DNA of 64,000 nucleotides from Pseudochelatococcus contaminans (GTDB lineage Bacteria > Pseudomonadota > Alphaproteobacteria > Rhizobiales > Beijerinckiaceae): the NCBI RefSeq assembly GCF_014195635.1, contig NZ_JACICC010000003.1, positions 124,001 to 188,000 on the forward strand. Direction: 5' to 3'. The first letter of the stretch is position 1, and each line of letters starts with the position of its first letter. A program made the position numbers and the translations under genes. Below, piece by piece: positions 10,114 to 21,691 of this stretch. The notes beneath the pieces are model-generated. The model searched no databases, had not been told where the DNA came from, and worked only from the letters and a program-made list of their open reading frames with translations.

Positions 10114-11298
10114 ATGAACAAGCCGAGCCACGGCGACGATTATGCCAACGACATCACCCCGGCTGAAATCGAGGAGGCCGTGCGCTGGCGTCGTCATCTG
10201 CACGCCCGGCCCGAACTGGCGTTCGAGGAGCATGAAACGTCCGCCTTCGTCGCCCGCGAACTTGCCGGTTTCGGCTACGAGGTCCATACCGGCCTGGGGC
10301 GCACCGGCGTTGTGGGCACGCTGCGCAAGGGGTCCGGCAGCCGCACGATCGGCCTGCGCGCGGATATGGATGCGCTACCCATTCTCGAAGCGACCGGGGT
10401 TGACTATCAATCGCGCGTACCGGGCAAGATGCATGCCTGCGGCCATGATGGCCACACCGCCACGCTGCTGGCGGCGGCAAGGCTGATCGCCCGCACGCCG
10501 TTTGACGGCACGGTGCATCTCATCTTCCAGCCGGCCGAGGAAAATGAAGGCGGCGCGCGGGAAATGATTGCTGATGGCCTGCTGCGCCTGTTTCCGCTGG
10601 ATGCGGCTTACGGCATGCACAACTGGCCGGGCATGGATGTGGGGATTTGCGCCGTGCGCGAGGGGCCGATGATGGCCGCTTCCGGCACTTTCGAGATCAC
10701 GGTGGCGGGACGCGGTGCGCATGGGGCGATGCCGCATCAGGGCGCGGACCCGGTCGTCGCGGCCAGTGCCGTCGTCGGTGCGTTGCAGACCATCGCCAGC
10801 CGCAACGTGCCGCCCATCGAGGCGGGCGTCGTTTCGGTGACGCAGATCCACGGTGGCGATACGTGGAACGTCATTCCGGAGGCGGTGGTGCTGCGGGGCA
10901 CGACGCGCTGGTTCCGCGATGCGGTGGGCGAGGTGGTGCGCGAGAGGCTGCACACGCTGGCGGCCTCAGTGGCGGCGGGCTATGGCTGCCGGGCGGACGT
11001 GGTGCATAAGGATGGCTATCCGGCCACCGTCAACAATGATGCCAATGTCGCTGTGGTGCGGCAGGTGGCGGCGCGACCTGAGGTCGGGCTGCGGATTGCC
11101 GAGTTCGATCTCAACACGGCGTCCGAGGATTTCGCCTTCATCCTGCGCGAGGTTCCCGGCGCGTATTTCATGCTGGGCGGCAAGCGGGAAGGGGAGAATC
11201 CGAATCTTCACTCGCCGCGTTTCGATTTCAACGATGCCATCATTCCACATGGCGCGCGGTTCTGGCGGGAACTGGTGCGCGTGAGCCTACCGGCCTGA
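10114..11298 (+). CDS. M20 family amidohydrolase (hippurate/IAA-amino acid hydrolase type)
   Basis: A cytoplasmic metal-dependent amidase of 394 residues that removes an acyl group from an N-acyl amino acid or similar amide. The start at 10114 is chosen because GGGAG lies just upstream (10096-10107); the frame is open back to 10021, but that stretch covers the tandem repeat. Metal-site motifs are intact: HACGHDGHTA (H107, C109, H111, H114) and the catalytic pair E142-E143 in AEENEGGA. A dimerisation domain is inserted near residues 190-300. Its stop overlaps the end of the convergent ABC permease gene by 12 bases. A paralogue of the same subfamily lies at 59780-60955. Confidence 0.9.
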   Translation: MNKPSHGDDYANDITPAEIEEAVRWRRHLHARPELAFEEHETSAFVARELAGFGYEVHTGLGRTGVVGTLRKGSGSRTIGLRADMDALPILEATGVDYQSRVPGKMHACGHDGHTATLLAAARLIARTPFDGTVHLIFQPAEENEGGAREMIADGLLRLFPLDAAYGMHNWPGMDVGICAVREGPMMAASGTFEITVAGRGAHGAMPHQGADPVVAASAVVGALQTIASRNVPPIEAGVVSVTQIHGGDTWNVIPEAVVLRGTTRWFRDAVGEVVRERLHTLAASVAAGYGCRADVVHKDGYPATVNNDANVAVVRQVAARPEVGLRIAEFDLNTASEDFAFILREVPGAYFMLGGKREGENPNLHSPRFDFNDAIIPHGARFWRELVRVSLPA

Positions 11299-12117
11299 GC
11301 GGCGGCGAGAGCCGAACGCCTCGCCGACGGCGATCACCGCGACGCAGATTGCCACGAGCACCAGCGATGCGGCGGCAGCGGCCGGAAAGTCGCTGCCGGT
11401 CTCGGAAATCTTGCTGTAGAGAACCAGTGGCAGGATGTTGACCTGCGTACCCACGAGCGCCAGCGCCGTGCCATACGCGCCGATGGCCACCGCCGCCGTC
11501 AGGCAGAACGCAGCGACGAGGCTGGGCATGATCTGCGGCAGCATCACGTCGATGAAGGCGCCAAATCGCCCCGCGCCAAGCGACCGCGCCGCCGAGAGCT
11601 GTGCGCGGTCGAAATTGCCGATTGCCGGCAGAACGATCAGCACGACGCGCGGTATGAGATAATACGAATAAGCAAGACCGAGCCCCAGCGGCGAGTAGAT
11701 GAACGCCCCGACGACTGACGGATCGAACCCCGCTTTCGCCAACAGCAGCGTGACGAAACCGGCCCGGCCCAGCAGCAGGATGAACCCGTAGGCGACGATC
11801 AGACCAGAGAACGTCAGCGGCAGGGAGATGGCGATCAGTGTCGCCGTGCGCAGACCGGGCTTGAAGCGGGCGAGCGCCAGCGCGACACCGACACCGACCA
11901 CAAGGGAAAACAGCGGTGCGGCGGTGCCCAGAATGAGTGTGCCGCGCAAGCCGTTCCAGAACACTGGATCGGCCGCAAGGCGCGCGAACGCGCCGCCGTC
12001 TTCCGCAAATGCGCCTGATAGCACGGCGCCGACCGGCAGCAAAAAGAACAGGCCGATCAGCGCCGCGCCCGGCGTGGCGAAAGCGGCGAGCATGCGGTTT
12101 GAAACGCGGGAGTTCAT
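11287..12117 (-). CDS. ABC transporter permease (Fe3+/thiamine/spermidine-type importer), subunit 1
   Basis: An inner-membrane permease of 276 residues, the last gene of a four-gene importer operon. It has about six hydrophobic helices and the cytoplasmic EAA loop that contacts the ATPase (SAARSLGAGRFGAFIDVMLP, near residues 178-197). It starts 33 bases after the binding-protein stop. It resembles the CysT/ThiP/PotB class that pairs with a second permease, encoded at 14355. The substrate is uncertain. Confidence 0.85.
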   Translation of the reverse strand: MNSRVSNRMLAAFATPGAALIGLFFLLPVGAVLSGAFAEDGGAFARLAADPVFWNGLRGTLILGTAAPLFSLVVGVGVALALARFKPGLRTATLIAISLPLTFSGLIVAYGFILLLGRAGFVTLLLAKAGFDPSVVGAFIYSPLGLGLAYSYYLIPRVVLIVLPAIGNFDRAQLSAARSLGAGRFGAFIDVMLPQIMPSLVAAFCLTAAVAIGAYGTALALVGTQVNILPLVLYSKISETGSDFPAAAAASLVLVAICVAVIAVGEAFGSRRRSGR

Positions 12118-12150
12118 GGCCGGGTGCTCGCCGTCATCGTCCGGTCGTTC

Positions 12151-13233
12151 CTATTGCCCGAGGACGGCTTTTGCCCAGCCGGCATCGATCTCGGCCTTTT
12201 TGGCGGTCGCCTTGGCGATGTCGAGCGGGCGAACCTGCGGCGATGCCGGCAGCTTGTCGGCGATGGCCGGCGGCAGCTCGATGCCGGGCACGGACGGGCG
12301 CACATAGCCTTCGGCAAAGATCTTCTGGCCCGGATCGCTGAGCACGAAGTTGAGCCACAGCTTGCCCGCATTCGGGTTGGGGCCGTTCTTCACCAGCGAG
12401 ATGGCGTAGGGCGCGGCGGCCGATGCCTCGGCGGGAATGACCACGGCGATGTCGTCGCCCAGCCCGTCCGTGTACTTGGCGCGCAGGCCGTCGTTCTCAT
12501 AGCCGATCCAGATCGGGATCTCGCCCTTGATGAATTGGGCGTAGGGCGTTGTGCCCACCGTGCGCAGCACATTGCCGGCCTTGGTCAGGCGGCCCAGATA
12601 ATCGATGCCCGGCGTCACGTTGTCCATGTCGCCGCCGTTGCCGAACGCGGCGGCAAACACCACCACCTGCCCCTGCCCGGTGGAGCGGGGATCCTGATAA
12701 ACGATGGTGTTCTTGTAGTCCGGCTTCAGCAGGTCGGCCCAGTTTTGCGGAACCGCCTTGACCAGCTTGGTGTTGACGAGAAACGCCACGCTGAGTGTAT
12801 GCACGGCAAACCAGCGGGCCTCCGGATCACGCAATTCGCCGGGCAGGCGGTCGAAGTTCACCGGGCGGTAGCTTTCCACGACCCCAGCCTTCGCGGCGTC
12901 GAGCGCCGAACCGGCGAAGTAATAGGCCGTATCGGCCTGCGGGCGGTTGCGGGCCTTCGCCAGCGCCACCACCGTCGCCGCCGATCCGAGATCGTTGTAG
13001 ACGAGTTCGACGCCCGGATAACGCTCCTTGAACGCCTTGAACTCACCGGCCCAGTTGGCCCACGTCGGGCCTGTGTCGAAGGAAACGACGAGGCCCTCGC
13101 TGCGGGCGGCGTCGTAAAGCGCTCGCTCGCCCGCGTAATACTCTGCGCCGTCGAAGGCGAAGGCGGAAGTCGTCAGGCTCATTGCCATCGCGGCAGCGGT
13201 GGCGATGCCTGTCATCAGTTGCCGTCTGTTCAT
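12151..13233 (-). CDS. ABC transporter extracellular solute-binding protein, family 1
   Basis: The periplasmic binding protein (360 residues) of the same importer. A signal peptide ends near residue 26 (MTSLTTSAFA-type AxA site in SLTTSAFA). The mature sequence has the two-lobe character of the Fe3+/polyamine/thiamine-binding cluster, with motifs such as ARSEGLVVSFDTG, LVNTKLVKAVPQNWADLLKP and a Trp-rich hinge. It sits between the ATPase and one permease, an unusual but known order. Without a search the ligand remains open between ferric complexes, thiamine, polyamines and 2-aminoethylphosphonate. Confidence 0.8.
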   Translation of the reverse strand: MNRRQLMTGIATAAAMAMSLTTSAFAFDGAEYYAGERALYDAARSEGLVVSFDTGPTWANWAGEFKAFKERYPGVELVYNDLGSAATVVALAKARNRPQADTAYYFAGSALDAAKAGVVESYRPVNFDRLPGELRDPEARWFAVHTLSVAFLVNTKLVKAVPQNWADLLKPDYKNTIVYQDPRSTGQGQVVVFAAAFGNGGDMDNVTPGIDYLGRLTKAGNVLRTVGTTPYAQFIKGEIPIWIGYENDGLRAKYTDGLGDDIAVVIPAEASAAAPYAISLVKNGPNPNAGKLWLNFVLSDPGQKIFAEGYVRPSVPGIELPPAIADKLPASPQVRPLDIAKATAKKAEIDAGWAKAVLGQ

Positions 13234-13275
13234 ATCGATGGTTCCTGTCTGTCGAAATCATGATGATCCAGCGAG

Positions 13276-13301
13276 GCGGGGAGTGCTGGCGCAGCCCCCG
13301 C
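13276..13301 (-). repeat. Intercistronic hairpin between importer ATPase and binding-protein genes
   Basis: GCGGGG (13276-13281) pairs with CCCCGC (13296-13301), and the interior adds GCTG/CAGC. It lies immediately after the ATPase stop and 42 bases before the binding-protein start, with no T-tract. Such hairpins often stabilise one segment of a polycistronic mRNA so that the binding protein is made in excess. Confidence 0.45.
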
Positions 13302-13302
13302 T

Positions 13303-14358
13303 TTACGATCTCGTGCCGGCGGCATCCGCTCCAGGCAGCAGCCGCACGGCCTCGGCGGGGATGGATACCCGCCCGACCGCGCCGCGCGCGTGCGTTTCCA
13401 GCCGGATGAGCCCGCCGTCGACGCTGAGGTCGATGCGGCGGACAGGGCCGAGGTAGCGGTCGGCGACGACCGTTCCCCGGAAATCGTTGACCCGAGGCGG
13501 CTGCTCCGGCTCGGCAGGCAGGATGCGTTCGGGCCGCACCAGCACCGTCACTGCCGCGCCGGGGGCATATCCCTCCGTGGGGCAGGCGAGGGTGCCGATG
13601 GGTGTCCGCACGCGGCCGGTCTGTTCCACTGTGCCCGGCCAGAGGTTGGACTGGCCGACGAAAGCCGCCACCTGGGCATTGACGGGCGTTTCGTACAGCT
13701 CTTGCGGCGTGCCGGTCTGAATGATCCGTCCATCATGCATGACGACGATCCGGTCGGCGATGGACAGCGCCTCTTCCTGATCGTGCGTCACCAGCAGCGT
13801 GGCGATGCCGGCGGCGCGCTGAACGCGGCGGATCTCGTCGCGCATGCTGGTGCGCAGCCCGGCATCCAGCGCCGAGAGCGGTTCGTCCAGCAGCAGGCCG
13901 CGCGGTTCGAATATGAGCGCGCGCGCCAATGCCACGCGCTGCTGCTGTCCGCCGGAAATCGCCGTCGGCCAATCATCGCCGCGCCCTTCCATGCCGACCC
14001 GGGCGAGCATCTCCTGCGCCCGCGCGCGCCGTTCCGCACGGCGGATGCCGCGCACCTTGAGCGGATAGGTAATATTCTCCCACAGGCGCATGTGCGGAAA
14101 TAACGCGTAGTTCTGAAAGACGACGCCGAGGCGGCGGTCCTCCGGCGCAAGCGGGCCAACATCCTGCCCCTCGACCAGAATGCGCCCGGCATCCGGCTGC
14201 ATGAAACCGGCGAGCAGTTTCAGGATGGTCGATTTGCCGGAACCGGAAGCGCCGATGACCGCGACAAGCTCACCCCGCGCGATGTCCAGCGCGATGTCGA
14301 ACACCCCCGCCGTGCTGCCGGGATAGATGAAGGACACGTTGTCATAGGTCAGGCTCAT
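13303..14358 (-). CDS. ABC transporter ATP-binding protein with TOBE domain (PotA/FbpC/ThiQ-like)
   Basis: The ATPase of the importer, 351 residues. Walker A is GASGSGKST (36-44), the signature is [15 protein letters not shown], Walker B is [12 protein letters not shown] and the switch histidine lies in [11 protein letters not shown]. The C-terminal third carries a TOBE domain ([12 protein letters not shown]), typical of importers of polyamines, iron or sugars. Its start overlaps the upstream permease stop by ATGA (14355-14358). Confidence 0.9.
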
Positions 14359-15143
14359 GCCGCACCTCCGCTGCCGCGCGCGCCGCCAATTCTCGCCGCC
14401 GCGCCGCTGGCAAGGGAGGCGGCAACCGCGAGAACAAGAAGCACGACGGTCGCCGCGCAGGCAAAGCCGGTTGCGCCGTAGAAGGCTTGCAGCAACACAA
14501 CGGGGTATGTGCGCGATAGGAACCCCGCCACGAGGTTGGAAAGCTGAAACTCGCCGATGGACAGAGCCGCCACCGTCAGCAGCGCAGACAGCAGGCTGGG
14601 TTGCAGCAACGGCAAGGTTACGTCGCGCATCCGCGCGGCAAAAGACGCCCCGAGCGTCGCGGCTGCTTGCTCATACTCGTCAAGGCGGAGCTGATCCATA
14701 TCCGCCACCAGCGCCGTGACGGTATAGGGCAGGGTGAGCACAACGTGCCCGGCCGCCAGCAGCCAGAAACTGCCGAGCCACGGCAGCGTGTCGGACGAGA
14801 ACACGAGGATGAAACCGAAAGCCAGCACCAGTTCCGGCACCGCTACGGGCATCAGCGTCACCAGCCGTGCCGCGAGCCGCACGCCGCCGCGGGCCCCGGC
14901 ATGGATGGCGTAAGCCAGCGGCACGCCGATGAGCACGTTGAGCGCGCAGGTGAAGGCGACGACCTGAAGGCTGGTGATGAACGCGCGACGGAAGCTTGGA
15001 TCGCTGGCAACCTCGGCATACCACCGCCACGTAAAGCCAGATGGCAGCAGGGTATTGCTCCACGTTTCGCCAAATGAACCAACCCCCAGCAGCACGACAG
15101 GCGCGGCCAGGAAAAGCAGATAGGCGAACGCGATAAAAGGCAA
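14355..15143 (-). CDS. ABC transporter permease (Fe3+/thiamine/spermidine-type importer), subunit 2
   Basis: The first gene of the importer operon, 262 residues with about six hydrophobic helices and the EAA-type loop EYEQAAATLGASFAARMRDV. It pairs with the permease at 11287. The frame begins at a TTG (15143) with no good ribosome-binding site, and no ATG or GTG is in frame shortly upstream, so the N-terminus is uncertain by some residues. The 208 bases upstream to the next gene must hold the promoter; the AT-rich part is about 15220-15300. Confidence 0.8.
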   Translation of the reverse strand: MPFIAFAYLLFLAAPVVLLGVGSFGETWSNTLLPSGFTWRWYAEVASDPSFRRAFITSLQVVAFTCALNVLIGVPLAYAIHAGARGGVRLAARLVTLMPVAVPELVLAFGFILVFSSDTLPWLGSFWLLAAGHVVLTLPYTVTALVADMDQLRLDEYEQAAATLGASFAARMRDVTLPLLQPSLLSALLTVAALSIGEFQLSNLVAGFLSRTYPVVLLQAFYGATGFACAATVVLLVLAVAASLASGAAARIGGARGSGGAA

Positions 15144-15351: not shown

Positions 15352-15849
15352 TCAGGATTTGGAAAAGCGCGCCCCGGTGATCCGCAGCAAGCTGACGAAG
15401 CCTGTTTCCGGGTCGGTCCATGATCCCACTTCCAGCGTCCCGGTGACGTCGATGGGGGCGTTGTATTGCACGAATGTCTGCGCGCTCTTCAGATAAACCA
15501 CGACGATATCATCCGGCCAGTCGGCATCCGAGGAGCAGAAGGGGCAGATGGACATCGGCGTCGAGGACAGGACGAAGAACTTCGCTTCCGCCTTGAGAGG
15601 TGGCGCCATGAAGCCGCGCATGGATATGGTGTTGCCCTTCAGCTCCTTGACGCGCGGGGAGAACTCAAGCCCCAGCACGCTGATCTTGCCGTAAAGCTCG
15701 TCGAACCCAAGGCTGGGCGTGGCGGCGAAAGCGGGAAGCACACCGATGCTGGTCAATCCCGCAGCGCAGGCGAAAGTCATGAACGACCGCCGGTTGAGAT
15801 CGCGCATGGCGTCGGCAGCGACACCGTTTTTTCTGACATCGCGGGTCAT
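15352..15849 (-). CDS. Tat-type secreted DUF3299-like protein of unknown function
   Basis: A 165-residue exported protein. The N-terminus has a twin-arginine motif (NRRSFMT) then a hydrophobic stretch ending in LPAFAA, fitting Tat export. The mature part is small and beta-rich: ISMRGFMAPPL, then a CPFC-type pair in SICPFCSSDADWPDDIVVVYL, and a C-terminal GTLEVGSWTDPETGFVSLLRI. From memory this resembles DUF3299-like proteins found next to LolD/MacB-type ABC pairs linked to zinc, as here (18293-20328). The two cysteines could bind metal or form a disulfide; that is inference. GGAG lies about ten bases before the chosen ATG. Confidence 0.65.
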   Translation of the reverse strand: MTRDVRKNGVAADAMRDLNRRSFMTFACAAGLTSIGVLPAFAATPSLGFDELYGKISVLGLEFSPRVKELKGNTISMRGFMAPPLKAEAKFFVLSSTPMSICPFCSSDADWPDDIVVVYLKSAQTFVQYNAPIDVTGTLEVGSWTDPETGFVSLLRITGARFSKS

Positions 15850-15866
15850 GGTCTCGTTCTCCGTGG

Positions 15867-15901
15867 ATCATTTCCGCGTCTCGGTAAGACGCGGAAATGA
15901 T
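15867..15901. repeat. Perfect 15-bp inverted repeat before the Tat-type gene
   Basis: ATCATTTCCGCGTCT (15867-15881) and AGACGCGGAAATGAT (15887-15901) form a perfect 15-bp stem with a five-base loop, ending 18 bases upstream of the Tat-protein start. No T-tract follows on either strand, so a simple terminator is not supported. It could be an operator, an mRNA-end hairpin for the upstream phosphatase transcript, or part of the adjacent mosaic repeat. Confidence 0.6.
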
Positions 15902-15921
15902 GTCGTCATGCAAATTCAGGC

Positions 15922-16019
15922 CAGAGCATTTCGGTATTTCGTTGAAACGCAGAGATGCTCTGTCTTGTTGGTTTTACGCGTTGTCTTCACGCAGAGGGGT
16001 ATCCGCTTTGCGTGAAGAC
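15922..16019. repeat. RIME-like palindromic mosaic repeat
   Basis: CAGAGCAT (15922-15929) pairs with ATGCTCTG (15955-15962), and GTCTTCACGCA (15983-15993) pairs with TGCGTGAAGAC (16009-16019), with a few more pairs inside. Two adjacent palindromes in an intergenic position, with sequence such as AGAGCATTTC and GGTATCCGCTTTGCGTGAAGACGC, resemble the short RIME/BIME-type elements scattered through Rhizobiales genomes. It follows the alkaline phosphatase stop and may act as its 3' hairpin. Confidence 0.5.
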
Positions 16020-16047
16020 GCTTGAGTGCCTCAAGTCGGCACGTGCT

Positions 16048-17961
16048 TTATTCGTCGGTCTTTGCTTCGCCGAGGGAGAAGACATCGGCGAGAACGAAGA
16101 AGACGTCCGAGTTTTCCATGTAGCCGTGCAGCTTCTCGGAACCCGGACCCTGCGCCTGAAGGACGACGTCGTCAACGGCATGGACGCCGGTGTCCTCGGA
16201 GGTGGGGATGTTACCGATGCGAAGCACGGCGCCGGGCACGTTCTTGTAGGCTTCGTTGGCGACGTACTCGCCCTTTTCGTTCTTGAGGGCAGGCACGAAA
16301 GTCCCGTCCATCTTCGGCCCGAACGTTTCGTAGTAGTCGGGATAGTTATTGGCGAAGACGGCCAGCGGACGCTTCACGTCGATGGTGTCGGGATAGCCGT
16401 CGCCGTCGGTGTCCTTGTAGTCGGGGAAGCCGCCGTTCTGGTAAGTGCCGACGCGCTGGCGCATCGGGGAAGCGCGCTCGATGGAGCCTGCACCCTCGAC
16501 CTGGGCGTTTTCGTTCAGCTCAAGCACTTTCTGCTCTTCCGGCGTAAAGTTCCGGTCGATGGTGCCGATGATGGAAACGCCGTGGGTGTGGTCGGCGGTG
16601 GTGATGATCAGCGTGTCGGGATGCTTCTTCGCGAATTCCTGCGCGATGCCGACAGCCTTGTCGAGCGTGATGGTCTCGACGATGGCGCGGTCGAAGTCCA
16701 GCGGGTGCTCGTACTTGTCGATCAGGGCGCCTTCGACCATCAGGAAGAAGCCGTCTTCGTTCTTTTCCAGCACGCTGAGGGCCGATTCCATCATTTCCGG
16801 CACGCTGGGCTGGTTCGGGAACTTCTTGGCATCGCCAAGGCCCAGCTGCATGTTGACGGTGCCTTCCATGTTGCCGGTGGAGAACAGGCCCAGCACCTTG
16901 CCGGAGTTGGTTTCGGCGGCAACCTTGGTCAGCTCGTCGCGGTCGGTCGCGACTGCGTAGCCCGCTTCGCGGAACTTTTCGATGTAATCGATGTCGTCCT
17001 TGCGCTTCGAGCCGGGCGTGCTCTTGGGCAGGAAGTAGGCCGATCCGCCGCCCAGAATGATCTCGGGCTGCACATCATAGAACATGCCGACGATTTCAGG
17101 CTTGTCGGCGCGGCGGCGGGTGTGCGAGACGACGGCGGCCGGCGTAGCGTCCTGCAGCTCGGCGTTCGAAACGATGCCGATGGCCTTCTTCGGCGCCATG
17201 CGGCGAATGGCTTCGGCGATGGTTTCCTGCCGGGGCTGGTCGAGCGAATTCTCGTTGCGGGTGGCGTAGACGCCAAGCGCGTTCACCGCGGACTTCTGGC
17301 CCGTCATGTAGGCGGACATCGTGTTGGCGCTGTCGGCGGCGATGGAGTCGGTGGACGACGTGCCGATGAAGGCCATGGCCGGCAGCGTATCCATGTTGAG
17401 CTTGCCGTTGGCCTTGCCCTCGGTGTTGCCCTTGGACATGATGCGTGCGCCGGTGCGCATGGAAACGGTCATGCCGTCGCCGAGGATGAAGATGATGTTC
17501 TTGGCGCGGGCTTCCTTCGGCGTGCCCGATACATCCCACTTCACGCTGCTGCGGAACGTCTTGCCTGCTGCGTCCTTGCCCTCGGCGACGACGGTGTAGG
17601 CGCCCGGCTCGACCAGCGAAACCTGCTTGATGACCAGCGAGGAGCCATCCTTGCCGTTCTCGTTTTCGATGTACTCGGCCTTTTCATCGAAGACTTCGGC
17701 GAAGGGCTTGTCGTTGAGGGTGAGCGTGATGTCGCTTTCCTTGACGACAGTCGGGAACTCGACCTTCAGGTCGAACTTGCCGCCCGAGAGCAGCCGTGCG
17801 CGATCGATGGGATAGATCTTGGTGCCAGCGCCTTCGGCAGCGATCAGAACTTCGTTTTCGAGTTTCTGCACTTCGCCGGTCTGTGCCAGTGCAACGCCCG
17901 GCACAAGAGCCGTGGTGGAAATAATGGCCAGCGTGAATGCTGCCAGTGTGGAGTGACGCAT
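16048..17961 (-). CDS. PhoA-type alkaline phosphatase with N-terminal beta domain
   Basis: A secreted phosphomonoesterase of 637 residues. The start at 17961 is preferred because GGGGA lies seven bases upstream; an in-frame ATG eight codons earlier has no such site. Signal peptide to about residue 26 (PGVALA). Residues 30-150 form a beta-rich domain with an immunoglobulin-like look. The catalytic domain follows: ILGDGM (D162), nucleophile Ser211 in ADSANT, metal ligands in VEGALIDKYEH (E410, D415, H419), TADHTH (D457, H458) and GVH (H594). An insertion at 517-525 reads DTDGDGYPD, a calcium-loop pattern. It lies between the Tat-type protein and the divergent His-rich ABC pair. The family needs zinc and magnesium. 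Confidence 0.9.
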   Translation of the reverse strand: MRHSTLAAFTLAIISTTALVPGVALAQTGEVQKLENEVLIAAEGAGTKIYPIDRARLLSGGKFDLKVEFPTVVKESDITLTLNDKPFAEVFDEKAEYIENENGKDGSSLVIKQVSLVEPGAYTVVAEGKDAAGKTFRSSVKWDVSGTPKEARAKNIIFILGDGMTVSMRTGARIMSKGNTEGKANGKLNMDTLPAMAFIGTSSTDSIAADSANTMSAYMTGQKSAVNALGVYATRNENSLDQPRQETIAEAIRRMAPKKAIGIVSNAELQDATPAAVVSHTRRRADKPEIVGMFYDVQPEIILGGGSAYFLPKSTPGSKRKDDIDYIEKFREAGYAVATDRDELTKVAAETNSGKVLGLFSTGNMEGTVNMQLGLGDAKKFPNQPSVPEMMESALSVLEKNEDGFFLMVEGALIDKYEHPLDFDRAIVETITLDKAVGIAQEFAKKHPDTLIITTADHTHGVSIIGTIDRNFTPEEQKVLELNENAQVEGAGSIERASPMRQRVGTYQNGGFPDYKDTDGDGYPDTIDVKRPLAVFANNYPDYYETFGPKMDGTFVPALKNEKGEYVANEAYKNVPGAVLRIGNIPTSEDTGVHAVDDVVLQAQGPGSEKLHGYMENSDVFFVLADVFSLGEAKTDE

Positions 17962-18292
17962 GATGTCCCCGCTTGCGTTATGCAACGTTGTTACATAGCA
18001 AAGGTCGTTATCGACTCTCTTTGCTCAAGAGTTGCGCGCGAAAACTATAAATTCTAAATGTCACTTGAATGAATACGCGGCAAATGAACATAGTTGCATT
18101 AATTGGATAGTATTATTATTTATTTTGGATGGATCCATATCTTGTTTGTCATAAACGACTGCTATCCCGTAGCTCCATCAGATGCTTCCGCCGAACGCTT
18201 AGGTTTCCGGAAGCGTCAAGGGCGCGACATCGCCGAATTGCCGCATCGTCTTCAATTGGCGGCCGCGTCGTTCCATACTTCGGGAGCAAGTG
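17962..18292. other. AT-rich divergent promoter region, phosphatase / ABC pair
   Basis: This 331-base gap lies between the divergent phosphatase and ABC genes and is AT-rich at 18040-18160. Near the phosphatase start is an imperfect palindrome, CAACGTTG at its centre (17983-17990), flanked by ATGTAAC and GTTGCAT on the minus strand. GTTGCATTA recurs at 18091-18099 on the plus strand. I could not match either to a known Zur or PhoB box with confidence. No small gene is evident. Confidence 0.5.
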
Positions 18293-19042
18293 ATGGCAGG
18301 GCTTTCGCTATCCGGTGTCAGGGTGGAGTTTCCGGGTCTGGCCGCCCCGGTGCTCGATATCGCGGCGCTCGCGGTGGCGCGGGGCGAGGACGTTGCCGTG
18401 ACCGGGCCTTCGGGATCCGGCAAGACAACGCTCATCAACGTCATGACCGGGCTGGAAAAGCCCGCCGCCGGCTCGGTCCGCTGGGACGATACGGATCTCG
18501 TCCGGCTCGGTGAATCGCAGCGCGATGCGTGGCGTGCCGGCCACGTGGGGCTGGTCATGCAGGAATTTCACCTGTTTCCGGGCCTCAGCGCCATTGAAAA
18601 TGTGCTGCTGCCGGTTCGGTTTCGCCTCTTTTCGGTTCCCGCCGCCACGCGCGAGCGTGCGCTGGCGCTGCTGAAGCGGGTTGGCCTTTCGCGGCCGGAT
18701 CAGGATATCGCCACCATGTCGCGCGGCGAGATGCAGCGCGTGGCGGTGGCGCGGGCGCTGCTGGGGCGCCCGGCGGTGTTGATCGCCGACGAACCCACGG
18801 CCAGCCTTGACGCTGCAAGCGGCGCGGTGGTCGCGGATCTGCTGATCGAACTGGCGCGCGAGGAAAACGCCACGCTGATCGCCGTTACCCATGATCCGCG
18901 CCTCTCCGGCCGTCTCGGGCGGCGGTTGTCGCTGGTCGCGGGCCGTATCGCCGAAGATGTGGCGCAGGGCGAGGGCGCGGCCCCATCCTCCGCCACCCCC
19001 TATACGCCTCCGGCTGCCTCGCAGGGACAGGTGACGCCATGA
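18293..19042 (+). CDS. LolD/MacB-like ABC transporter ATP-binding protein
   Basis: A 249-residue ATPase. ATG 18293 is preferred over GTG 18290 because GGGAG (18282-18286) is then at proper spacing. Walker A is GPSGSGKTT (38-46), Walker B is VLIADEPTASLD, and the H-loop is VTHD. The ABC signature is altered to MSRGEMQRVAVARAL instead of LSGGQ. This class works with FtsX-fold permeases in lipoprotein release, mechanotransmission or export rather than import. Its last codons overlap the permease start (ATGA at 19039). Pairing with a His-rich permease suggests a metal role. Confidence 0.85.
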   Translation: MAGLSLSGVRVEFPGLAAPVLDIAALAVARGEDVAVTGPSGSGKTTLINVMTGLEKPAAGSVRWDDTDLVRLGESQRDAWRAGHVGLVMQEFHLFPGLSAIENVLLPVRFRLFSVPAATRERALALLKRVGLSRPDQDIATMSRGEMQRVAVARALLGRPAVLIADEPTASLDAASGAVVADLLIELAREENATLIAVTHDPRLSGRLGRRLSLVAGRIAEDVAQGEGAAPSSATPYTPPAASQGQVTP

Positions 19043-20328
19043 TTCCGGTTCGCTTCATCGCTGCCGATCTTCGCCGTTTGTGGGCGGGATCGCTGGTCAT
19101 CGTGCTGTTGATCGGCCTTGCGACGGCCCTTGGCATCGCGGTCGGTATTCAGGAACGCGCCTTGCGGCTCGGCAGCGCCCGCGCCGCAGACAGGTTCGAC
19201 CTCGTGGTCGGTGCGGCGGGGGCGGAAACGCAACTGGTGCTCAGTTCCGTCTTCCTTCAGGCCGCGCCGCTCACACTGCTGCCAGGCAGCGTGCTCAAGG
19301 ATCTGGCTGAAGATCCGCGTGTCGATTGGGCGGCTCCGGTGGGCTTCGGCGATTCGTTCAACGATCTGCCGATCGTGGGCACCACCGGCGAATTCCTCAC
19401 CGACAAGGGCCGCCGCCCGCTGGCCGAGGGCGAGGCTTTCCAAAAGCCCACTGACGCGGTTGTCGGCGCACTCGTCGATCTTCGGTTGGGCGACACCGTG
19501 AAGCCGGTGCACGGGTTGCCGGGAGAAGCCGGCCATACCCATGATGAACTGGCCTATACCGTCACGGGACGTCTCGCCGCCACGGGCACACCGTGGGACC
19601 GCGCCATCCTCGTGCCCATCGAGACGGTCTGGAGCATTCACGGACTCGATGGGCACACCGCCGACGCGCATGACCATGATCATGATCATGGGCACGACCA
19701 TGCGCATGAAGACCACGATCATGATCACGATCACGACGGCGTTCAGGATCATGCGGCGGAGGATCACCTTGGCCCGCCATGGGCTGCGGGGATTCCCGGC
19801 GTTCCCGCCGTCATCGTCAAGCCGAAATCCATCGCCAACGCCTATCAACTGCGCCAGCAATATCGCACCGACACCACGCTCGGCGTTTTTCCGGCGGAGG
19901 TGCTGACGCGCCTTTATGCGACGCTGGGCGATGCGCGCGTAATACTGACGGCCATCGCGATCGGCACGCAGGCGCTGGTCGGTGCGGCGGTGGTGCTGGT
20001 CTGCGTTGTCCACCTGTCCCAACGCCGGCGGCAGATCGGTGCACTGCGGGCATTGGGCGCGCCGCGTCTTTCCATTTTCGGCGTCGTCTGGGTGGAGCTT
20101 CTGCTGCTGATCGGCCTCGGGGTTCTGCTCGGTCTCGGTCTCGGCCTGCTGGGCGCGAAGGTGGCGGCCTCCTTCTTCACGCAGCAGAGCGGCATCGCGC
20201 TGCCCGTATCGCTGGAATGGTCGGATGTCGGCTTTGCCGGGATGCTGATGCTGGTGGCGGCCGTCATCGCACTCGTGCCGGCATGGCTCGCCTATCGCCA
20301 GCCGGCTGCCGCCGCGCTGCGGGGATGA
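19039..20328 (+). CDS. FtsX/MacB-like ABC permease with His/Asp-rich periplasmic loop
   Basis: A 429-residue permease with one N-terminal membrane helix (about 15-40), a long periplasmic domain and three C-terminal helices (about 313-335, 353-382, 396-418), the FtsX/MacB layout. Residues 211-243 are almost entirely His-Asp alternation with 13 histidines, and isolated His residues flank it (HTHDE near 175). This is a plausible Zn2+/Ni2+/Co2+-binding tract facing the periplasm. MacB-like pairs with such loops occur in zinc-regulated gene sets of other proteobacteria (general recollection), so a role in periplasmic zinc handling or loading of zinc proteins is the leading idea. It ends ten bases before the convergent DUF1576 gene. 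Confidence 0.85.
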   Translation: MIPVRFIAADLRRLWAGSLVIVLLIGLATALGIAVGIQERALRLGSARAADRFDLVVGAAGAETQLVLSSVFLQAAPLTLLPGSVLKDLAEDPRVDWAAPVGFGDSFNDLPIVGTTGEFLTDKGRRPLAEGEAFQKPTDAVVGALVDLRLGDTVKPVHGLPGEAGHTHDELAYTVTGRLAATGTPWDRAILVPIETVWSIHGLDGHTADAHDHDHDHGHDHAHEDHDHDHDHDGVQDHAAEDHLGPPWAAGIPGVPAVIVKPKSIANAYQLRQQYRTDTTLGVFPAEVLTRLYATLGDARVILTAIAIGTQALVGAAVVLVCVVHLSQRRRQIGALRALGAPRLSIFGVVWVELLLLIGLGVLLGLGLGLLGAKVAASFFTQQSGIALPVSLEWSDVGFAGMLMLVAAVIALVPAWLAYRQPAAAALRG

Positions 20329-20338
20329 AACGGGACGG

Positions 20339-21691
20339 TCAGGGAGCAGGGCCGCTCTGGGGCGGCGCTTGACGCTCCCTGATCGCCAGAATGATCGGCA
20401 CCAGAACGGCTGCCACGATGCCGGCTGCAAAACCGTTGTTGTAGAGGTTCAGGCCGCCGTGCAGGGCACCCACGGCCAGCGCCGCCGATGAGTGCAGGAA
20501 CCCTGCGGCCAAGCCCCAGTGCCAGCCAAAGCGCCCGGCGATGGGGGCAAGGGTGGTGCCGAACAGCGCCGCGAGCACGATGGCCGGGTCGTTGGCATTC
20601 CACGGCTTGGCCAGCGAACCGAGGAACACCCCGATGATGATGGGCGTGAAATTGCCCGGATGCTTGCCCATGGCGGCAAAGCCGACGATGGCGAAGATGC
20701 CGCCGATCACCGGGCCGTTGAGATCCGCGCCGATCAGCAGGATATAGCCAAGCCCGACAAGGCCGCTGAGGCCCATGTTGACCAGCGTGGCGCCAAGCCC
20801 CGCGAGGGCGATGAAATCCGTCGGCGCTTGCCCGGACGAAGCGAGGATCGTCTTGAAACCGACGAGCCAGCGGCGGTCGAGCAGGATGCCGCCCATGATG
20901 AGCGCCCCGAACCCCACGACCAGAAAACTGCCCAGCACCAGCGTATTGCCGGATGTCCAGATCATCACCGGGGCGGGCACGAACCCATAAGATTTGTAGA
21001 TGGCGACGATGAGCGTGCCGACGATGCCGGCGACGAACCCCATGTTGTAGAGGTTGTAACCCATGTGGGTGCGGAAGAGATGCGCGGCGACCGGCGGCAG
21101 CACGAAACCCGACACGAGGCTGGTAGCAACGGCGAGCGGCAGGCTGACGGGCAGCGACAGGGCGGTGCTGAACAGGATTTCCGAAAACATCGGCGCCAGC
21201 GCCGCGCCGAAGAACGCGGTGTTGATATGGACGCTGAACGGATCGCCGCGAAAGCGCGCATAGAGATAAACGCCCGCGACGGTGCACCATATGTTGAGGA
21301 CGTTCTTGCCGAAAAGCGAAAACCCCAGCATGAGAAACAGGCACGCCACCGTTGCCGCGCTCAGCCGCGCCCCGCACAGGTAGTAGCAGGCAATCGACAG
21401 CAGCGTCGTGAGCCCGGCGTTGAAGAACGCACCCCCGATGCCACCGACGCCGATATAGTCCGTGATCAGCGTATCCCTGACCAGCAGGATGCGGACGAAT
21501 CCGGCCAGCACATCGCCGGCCGGGTCGACCATGAAAGCGAAGGCCATGAACGCCGCCGCGCCAAGCGCCGCGACGAGCAATGCCCGCCCATCTGTTGTTG
21601 GAGCCGATGGCGCGGTGGCGGGAGAGGAGGGTGGTGAGCCCGAAAAGCGCTGCGCCGCTGCCTGCCGCATGCGGCGCAGGATTGCACTCAT
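20339..21691 (-). CDS. DUF1576 family polytopic membrane protein
   Basis: A 450-residue membrane protein with about 12 hydrophobic segments and an N-terminal Pro/Ser/Ala-rich cytosolic tail (residues 1-35). The motifs GYNLYNMGFVAGIVGT (about 222-237) and GGLNLYNNGFAAGIVAA near the C-terminus are two versions of one pattern, suggesting an internal duplication of a NLYN-containing pore or re-entrant element. I assign DUF1576 from memory of this pattern; no function is known for that family. The start overlaps the flavin reductase stop by ATGA (21688-21691), so the two are co-translated. Confidence 0.7.
   Translation of the reverse strand: MSAILRRMRQAAAQRFSGSPPSSPATAPSAPTTDGRALLVAALGAAAFMAFAFMVDPAGDVLAGFVRILLVRDTLITDYIGVGGIGGAFFNAGLTTLLSIACYYLCGARLSAATVACLFLMLGFSLFGKNVLNIWCTVAGVYLYARFRGDPFSVHINTAFFGAALAPMFSEILFSTALSLPVSLPLAVATSLVSGFVLPPVAAHLFRTHMGYNLYNMGFVAGIVGTLIVAIYKSYGFVPAPVMIWTSGNTLVLGSFLVVGFGALIMGGILLDRRWLVGFKTILASSGQAPTDFIALAGLGATLVNMGLSGLVGLGYILLIGADLNGPVIGGIFAIVGFAAMGKHPGNFTPIIIGVFLGSLAKPWNANDPAIVLAALFGTTLAPIAGRFGWHWGLAAGFLHSSAALAVGALHGGLNLYNNGFAAGIVAAVLVPIILAIRERQAPPQSGPAP

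What the first reader, a model, noticed from the sequence alone, without database searches (positions are those of the whole stretch)
15352..20328. Candidate zinc-handling island around an alkaline phosphatase
A Tat-type protein with a CPFC pair, a PhoA-type phosphatase (a zinc enzyme), and a divergent LolD/MacB-like ABC pair with a His-rich loop lie together. The ABC pair is of the mechanotransmission/export class, not an importer. Together they suggest a module delivering or guarding metal in the periplasm, possibly metalating the phosphatase. ABC pairs plus DUF3299-like proteins are seen in zinc-regulated sets elsewhere, but the phosphatase link would be new to me.
Basis: partly seen in the sequence, partly recalled or inferred. 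Interest (0 to 1): 0.6.

Follow-up and report, generated by a model that had tools for sequence, protein, structure and literature searches.

The report
Phosphatase operon with zinc-handling ABC machine
A phosphate-scavenging zinc enzyme travels, in bacteria from rhizobia to Deinococcus, in one four-gene unit with relatives of a zinc-starvation ABC system, which suggests that the cell makes the enzyme and its own metal supply together.

Summary
The four genes (Tat-type CPFC protein D, PhoA, LolD-like ATPase, FtsX/MacB-like permease) form one unit, phoA-D-A-M, in 80 of 80 database loci, 16 of 16 same-family loci, 4 of 6 further loci and 4 of 4 plasmid loci opened, one from Deinococcus. In the window the phoA-D block is inverted, hence the divergent look.

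The ABC pair is Zrg-like: three periplasmic histidines are invariant in 93 of 93 phoA-linked permeases and 9 of 9 beside DUF3299 genes, and absent from 4 of 4 paralogues. D misses the DUF3299 cut-off, but its model matches PA4066, the ZrgE homologue, first (Z 10.6). ZrgA is missing in 29 of 30 genomes with D.

Control is mainly by phosphate: a Pho-box matrix built without the window ranks 18052-18075 first of 127,954 sites. A znu-derived Zur matrix ranks 17980-17996 first of 63,984; such sites are a minority elsewhere (7 of 91).

Best reading: a PhoB-induced, ZrgA-less Zrg variant that supplies periplasmic zinc to PhoA. Metal, delivery and direction are inferred.

The parts
15352..15849 (-). 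D: Tat-type CPFC protein, distant structural relative of DUF3299/ZrgE
15850..16047 (.). phoA-D gap with three inverted repeats (15867-15901, 15917-15967, 15983-16019); no Pho-box or Zur-like site stands out
16048..17961 (-). PhoA-type alkaline phosphatase, Sec-type signal peptide by eye, no cysteines; the ORF extends to a TTG at 17985 but the ATG at 17961 is the likely start
17980..17996 (.). Zur-box-like imperfect palindrome ATGCAACGTTGTTACAT between the Pho box and the phoA start
18052..18075 (-). Pho-box-like site TATTCATTCAAGTGACATTTAGAA upstream of phoA
18290..19042 (+). A: ABC ATPase, LolD/YbbA class, with Walker A, signature and Walker B motifs; related to the ATPases beside DUF3299 genes
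19039..20328 (+). M: FtsX/MacB-like permease, ZrgB-related, overlapping the ATPase gene by 4 bases
19510..19641 (+). codons of the three invariant periplasmic histidines H158 (19510-19512), H168 (19540-19542), H201 (19639-19641) shared with permeases beside DUF3299 genes
19639..19773 (+). His/Asp-rich loop, low model confidence, variable in relatives

Best explanation
The four genes are one functional cassette. Phosphate starvation, through PhoB at the Pho box, induces a periplasmic zinc alkaline phosphatase together with a Zrg-like metal machine: an ATPase (ZrgC-like), a mechanotransmission permease with a three-histidine set in its periplasmic domain (ZrgB-like), and a Tat-exported CPFC protein with the ZrgE fold. 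ZrgA is absent. The most likely role of the machine is to hand zinc to newly exported PhoA when zinc is scarce: the CPFC protein or the permease's histidines hold zinc and ATP-driven movement releases it to the enzyme. In the window's genus a Zur-like site adds a low-zinc condition. Shown here: gene association, conserved histidines, fold kinship, Pho and Zur-like sites in DNA. Inferred: that the metal is zinc, that PhoB and Zur bind there, that PhoA receives the metal, and the direction of transfer.
For: phoA-D-A-M in the same order and strand in 80 of 80 loci (the best 80 of 580 confirmed), 16 of 16 family loci with D (4 of these genomes are also among the 80), 4 of 6 further loci (L173-L176) and 4 of 4 plasmid loci opened, including Deinococcus. 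In 149 family genomes all 20 with D have a PhoA and an M match; of 129 without D, 3 have a PhoA match and 1 an M match. In 80 loci the D-A and A-M gaps, previous stop to match start, have medians 5 and 0. Three His invariant in 93 of 93 phoA-linked permeases (window included) and 9 of 9 beside DUF3299 genes, 0 of 4 paralogues. D fold: 4hsp (PA4066) first, Foldseek E 4.6e-4, Z 10.6 against 8.7 for the next. Pho box: GTCAY-N6-GTCAY in 35 of 63 promoters, 0-1 at the other spacings 2-12, 0 on the other strand, shuffles 0.075; the held-out window site ranks first. Zur-like site. PhoA metal-site residues conserved.
Against: No experiment links these proteins to metal transfer. The Zrg relatives are described as zinc uptake systems, which would move zinc the other way. 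ZrgA, reported as essential in V. cholerae (PMC9820375), is missing. Most relatives have no recognisable Zur-like site (84 of 91 below 14 bits). E. coli PhoA needs no such machine (recalled). The window's ABC pair has no good Pho box of its own (best 4.8 bits on the + strand). 10 of 96 D proteins lack the RR pair, 7 of them from outside the Alphaproteobacteria. In two genomes of another class (L171, L172) a weak D relative lies beside phoA with no ABC pair found. The Pho matrix finds no good site before the Deinococcus (-5.9 bits), P. pantotrophus (5.8) or Roseomonas (6.3) genes. D's match to DUF3299 by profile is weak (57%), and many unrelated proteins of like fold follow at Z 8.7 and below.
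Confidence: 0.5

Rival explanations
1. Compensating zinc import: the A-M-D machine brings zinc into the cell, as proposed for Zrg. It is induced with phoA because a large pool of zinc phosphatase in the periplasm drains the supply; it does not touch PhoA itself.
For: Kinship with Zrg, which is reported to serve zinc uptake (PMC9820375, PMC9817125, passages read); Zur-like site in the window's genus.
Against: No ZrgA in 29 of 30 genomes with D; the permease fold is of the MacB/LolCDE/FtsX class, for which transport into the cytoplasm is not established (recalled); linkage to one phosphatase, while the own genome's ZnuA-type genes lie on other contigs.
Confidence: 0.2
2. Zinc salvage: PhoA stands in for ZrgA as a periplasmic zinc store, and the ABC machine with D strips zinc from PhoA when zinc falls.
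For: PhoA is the first gene of its unit as ZrgA is in two zrg clusters read in full; Zur-like site before phoA in the window's genus.
Against: The Pho box is the main signal (57 of 62 promoters at 14 bits or more, in sample), so the unit is made when PhoA activity is wanted.
Confidence: 0.1
3. Export or release of PhoA: the MacB/Lol-like pair moves PhoA from the periplasm to the surface or medium, with D as a chaperone.
For: Fold class of MacAB-TolC and LolCDE. In Roseomonas an outer-membrane efflux gene lies about 2.3 kb from phoA on the other strand.
Against: The window's PhoA has no cysteine, so no lipobox; no MacA- or TolC-type gene among the nine window proteins scanned or annotated in the other three plasmid stretches; the chromosomal neighbourhoods were not searched for such genes; the histidine set shared with ZrgB-type permeases has no role in it.
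Confidence: 0.1
4. Same device, other metal: the machine delivers cobalt, manganese, iron or magnesium rather than zinc.
For: No ligand or metal was observed in any model; histidine and cysteine sites are not specific.
Against: Zrg kinship, the Zur-like site and the conserved PhoA metal residues point to zinc.
Confidence: 0.1

Closest known systems
ZrgABCDE of Vibrio / PA4063-PA4066 of Pseudomonas (Zur-regulated zinc system)
   Same: LolD-like ATPase, FtsX/MacB-like permease with the same three invariant histidines, and a small secreted protein of the DUF3299 fold
   Different: No ZrgA; PhoA is the first gene; the small protein has CPFC where DUF3299 rows have C-x-H and a proline run, and usually an RR pair (86 of 96; ZrgE not tested for Tat); Pho box is the main signal; permeases only 22-29% identical
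PhoA alkaline phosphatases of Pho regulons
   Same: PF00245 fold, conserved catalytic and metal positions, Pho-box promoter
   Different: Extra N-terminal region of about 155 residues, no cysteines in the window's protein, constant company of D-A-M
MacB, LolCDE, FtsEX, HrtBA, YbbAP (mechanotransmission ABC class)
   Same: Permease fold, Z 15.4 to 20.8 for these and 22.2 for 5xu1
   Different: Histidine set in the periplasmic domain; the genes kept beside it are D and PhoA

Membership tests
Zrg zinc system | ZrgA (PF10986) encoded with the transporter | tested here: not met
   No PF10986 match in the window genome; 1 of 30 genomes with D has ZrgA, G005 (P. lubricantis), on another contig beside another M-like match; 3 of 3 zrg-bearing genomes rang
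Zrg zinc system | ATPase and FtsX/MacB-like permease related to ZrgC/ZrgB | tested here: met
   In 9 of 14 DUF3299 stretches opened, an ABC pair matches M at 22-29% and A at 37-43%; three His shared 9 of 9
Zrg zinc system | DUF3299 protein (ZrgE) | tested here: inconclusive
   Pfam cut-off not reached; profile comparison 57% probability; fold match to PA4066 first
Zrg zinc system | repression by Zur | tested here: inconclusive
   Zur-like site ranks first in the window, 16.6 bits against 18.5-24.9 for znu sites left out in turn; binding not testable
DUF3299 (PF11736) | score over the curated cut-off of 22 bits | tested here: not met
   No match in the own genome, for P0001 or in 17 members of A1; the same model rang in 46 of 249 other genomes
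PhoA alkaline phosphatase (PF00245) | family score and conserved catalytic and metal positions | tested here: met
   236 bits against 24.4; D170, S219, D279, T281, R292, E418, D423, H427, D465, H466, H602 in 95-96 of 96; matching to E. coli numbers is recalled plus the alignment; K424 is not among the near-invariant residues
Pho regulon | Pho box in the promoter | tested here: met
Pho regulon | PhoB-dependent induction | not testable with these tools
   Needs expression data for this species
MacB/LolCDE/FtsX class | FtsX domain and the permease fold of this class | tested here: met
   PF02687 55.7 bits; Z 22.2 to 5xu1, 20.8 to LolCDE, 18.1 to MacB
LolCDE lipoprotein release | lipoprotein client with a lipobox cysteine | tested here: not met
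   The linked PhoA of the window has no cysteine; other possible clients were not looked for
ZnuABC | ZnuA-type binding protein in the cluster | tested here: not met
   The genome's three PF01297 genes are on contigs C1, C2 and C5, none in the window on C3

The most novel reading that the evidence does not exclude
A dedicated, ATP-driven metalation machine for a secreted enzyme. The CPFC protein folds in the cytoplasm, is loaded with zinc there, is exported folded by Tat and so carries zinc out without a zinc-conducting channel; the three-histidine permease uses ATP-driven movement to take the metal from it and place it in PhoA. Under joint phosphate and zinc shortage (Pho box plus Zur-like site) the cell thus builds the zinc enzyme and its metal supply as one unit.
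Probability: 0.2. Interest if true: 0.85.

Novelty: new variant of a known kind. Interest (0 to 1): 0.66.

Why it matters
How zinc enzymes outside the cytoplasm get their metal under scarcity is, as far as I know, largely open, and zinc limitation of phosphatases links two nutrient cycles (general knowledge). A conserved operon tying a phosphatase to relatives of a zinc-starvation ABC system, with a Pho box and in this genus a Zur-like box, makes this testable with simple deletions. It may also help to explain the ZrgB, ZrgC and ZrgE type of protein, because here such proteins come without ZrgA.

Tried and rejected
Zur control as the main signal: the first consensus (recalled 15-base palindrome) gave the window 10 of 15, the free middle base counted, which shuffles often reach. 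Only a matrix built from znu promoters raised the window site to first rank. One search read all znuA loci as if on the + strand; loci are not re-oriented, so one search repeated it with correct strands and replaces it. The 13-base pattern was partly drawn from the phoA promoters themselves and is not used as proof.

Pho boxes by strict pattern in the whole own genome: the window site is not among the matches at one mismatch; it departs from the strict pattern and was found by the matrix.

A disulphide role for CPFC in PhoA: rejected, as 68 of 96 PhoA sequences, the window's included, have no cysteine. A Lol-type role for PhoA: rejected for the same reason. DUF3299 membership by sequence: not met. 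PF11736 rang in none of the 14 control genomes, so its absence in the own genome rests on the same model ringing in 46 of 249 other genomes.

Rows dropped: 39 of 105 loci (N-terminal motif not found) and 3 duplicates, leaving 63 with the window. Searches kept 4 duplicate genomes; searches dropped them; all five dropped L047, which has no DNA upstream. In one search, 4 duplicates and 4 short permeases. In one search one training site (L256) was judged a chance match and left out; one of the 30 znuA segments (L243) lies inside a gene. L068 and L047 are cut by contig ends. Of 13 phylum-sample genomes with D, neighbourhoods were read for 7, the window's own included. Of 14 DUF3299 stretches, 5 showed no ABC pair. 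Four of 55 plasmid records were opened, from the 30 listed.

The paralogous ABC pair in L040, L041, L042 and L049 has no D or PhoA match beside it and no histidine set.

Papers: none of the titles and abstract openings listed in searches names this operon (106 listed 15 of 22 papers, 107 15 of 68). Only open-licence PMC texts are held. Passages were read in PMC9817125, PMC9820375, PMC8829014 and PMC7029138 only. One search (a locus tag from memory) found nothing.
Full report
What is there. The window lies in a 4.1 Mb genome. Four genes are as described: D (15352-15849, -), phoA (16048-17961, -), ATPase A (18290-19042, +), permease M (19039-20328, +).

Gene association. A 17-row alignment of D (A1) found 580 confirmed relatives in genome contigs, of which the best 80 were returned. 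In 80 of 80, phoA, D, A and M follow in this order on one strand. In 20 neighbourhoods taken around M matches in the family, the 16 with D have the same order; the other 4 are a paralogous ABC pair without D or phoA (4 of the 16 genomes are also among the 80). Of six further loci from other families, four (L173-L176) have the full unit; two (L171, L172), with weak D relatives, have a PhoA relative but no ABC pair found. Plasmids of Deinococcus radiodurans, Paracoccus pantotrophus, Roseomonas and Qingshengfaniella have the unit (4 of 4 opened, of 55 plasmid records with a match). Among 149 family genomes, D occurs in 20; all 20 have an M and a PhoA match; of the 129 others 1 has M and 3 a PhoA match. 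These counts are not corrected for kinship. Members in Testudinibacter, Pasteurella testudinis and Deinococcus suggest transfer as a unit.

The window's layout. In G047 the phoA operon follows the same phosphonate-type ABC genes as in the window (SBP6 and ABC2), but phoA-D-A-M is co-directional. In the window phoA and D are turned round. The simplest account is one inversion of the promoter-phoA-D block, which put the phoA promoter between phoA and A. The four genes stayed together.

The ABC pair is Zrg-like. DUF3299 genes were found in 46 of 249 sampled genomes; 14 stretches around them were opened, and 9 have an ABC pair matching A and M. Two read in full have ZrgA (PF10986) first, then ATPase, permease and DUF3299. 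In an alignment of 93 phoA-linked permeases (window included), 9 beside DUF3299 genes and 4 paralogues, the positions of H158, H168 and H201 of M are His in 93 of 93 and 9 of 9 and in 0 of 4. By eye, the Deinococcus permease has them too. The model of M (mean pLDDT 88.5) aligns with 5xu1, LolCDE, HrtB and MacB (Z 22.2, 20.8, 19.2 and 18.1).

D is a ZrgE-like protein by fold. It has no Pfam hit. Profile comparison with 16 DUF3299 rows gives 57% probability over 70 columns. The model (pLDDT 79.7) has 4hsp, the DUF3299 protein PA4066, as its only Foldseek match under 0.001 and first by VIA-align (Z 10.6, 3.0 A, 112 residues; next 8.7). CPFC is present in 96 of 96 relatives; DUF3299 rows have C-x-H before a proline run in about the same place. 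An RR pair was found in 86 of 96 D proteins; 7 of the 10 without it are from outside the Alphaproteobacteria. Whether ZrgE proteins use Tat was not tested: of two seen, one has MRR at the start of its hydrophobic run and the other no RR.

ZrgA is missing. PF10986 rings in 1 of 30 genomes with D, G005, where it lies on another contig about 750 bases from another M-like match. Three zrg-bearing genomes rang as positive controls. In 6 of the 30 only D was found and the neighbourhood was not read.

PhoA. Eleven residues at catalytic and metal positions are conserved in 95-96 of 96; their roles follow from E. coli PhoA (numbering recalled, alignment). It should therefore need zinc.

Phosphate control. 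In 63 promoters GTCAY-N6-GTCAY occurs in 35, at the other spacings from 2 to 12 in 0-1 each, on the reverse strand in 0, in shuffles 0.075 on average. A matrix built from the 62 promoters other than the window's puts 57 of 62 at 14 bits or more (in sample). On the held-out window it ranks 18052-18075 (-) first of 127,954 positions, 15.9 bits, next 13.7; 3 of 400 random 250-base segments reach 14 bits. Because such motifs favour non-coding DNA, I estimate the chance that the first rank falls in this interval at perhaps a few per cent rather than 1 in 128,000; position and strand agree with the relatives. The matrix gives weak scores for three of the four plasmid members. In S. meliloti a putative alkaline phosphatase, SMc03243, is among the most phosphate-induced genes (PMC8829014, passages read); whether it is this phoA was not checked.

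Zinc control. Of 30 znuA upstream segments, 10 reach 11 of 15 to the recalled Zur palindrome, against 0.5 in shuffles. A matrix from 9 of these plus one site beside a znuB-like gene of the own genome (recognised by eye) scores its own members at 18.5-24.9 bits when each is left out, and the window's 17980-17996 at 16.6, first of 63,984, next 12.5. In 89,421 bases of other own-genome loci nothing reaches 14 bits; 0 of 478 random segments and 0 of the 102 AT-rich ones among them do; 7 of 91 phoA promoters do, among them both same-genus kin. A 15-base 7-1-7 palindrome is the EMSA-tested Zur box of S. fredii; the main text of that paper does not contain the word phosphatase (PMC7029138, passages read). 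So Zur control is likely only in some lineages, the window's genus included.

Mechanism. A zinc enzyme and a Zrg-like machine made together under phosphate starvation most simply means metal supply for that enzyme. The reverse flow (zinc import or salvage) is not excluded, because Zrg is described as an uptake system in which ZrgA is essential (PMC9820375, passages read). What is shown is linkage, kinship, conserved residues and sites; what is inferred is metal identity, binding and direction.

Noticed in passing
11287-15143: A phosphonate-type ABC transporter (PhnT2-like ATPase, SBP_bac_6 binding protein, one permease scanned and a second seen by eye) lies beside the module; its ATPase and binding protein are there in G047 too; substrate unknown.
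   Followed up: partly
15867-16019: Three inverted repeats fill the phoA-D gap (arms 15, 24 and 17 bases), possibly attenuators or repeat elements.
   Followed up: no
20339-21691: A DUF1576 membrane protein of unknown function, transcribed towards M.
   Followed up: no
L171 and L172: In two genomes of another class of the phylum a weak D relative (34-36%) lies beside a PhoA relative (33%) with no ABC pair found.
   Followed up: partly
L045 and L222: In two genomes of one genus (G052, G131) the best match in the whole genome to a Zur-type palindrome lies just before phoA; in G131 another lies before znuA.
   Followed up: partly
L040, L041, L042, L049: A paralogous ABC pair (38-39% identical permease) lacks the three histidines; in L040 it lies beside what look by eye like molybdenum-cofactor genes.
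   Followed up: partly
L267: Deinococcus radiodurans carries the module on a 177 kb plasmid, with an annotated permease shorter than the others (328 aa) and no Pho-box match.
   Followed up: partly
G031 and G075: These two genomes have a second D-like copy on another contig.
   Followed up: no
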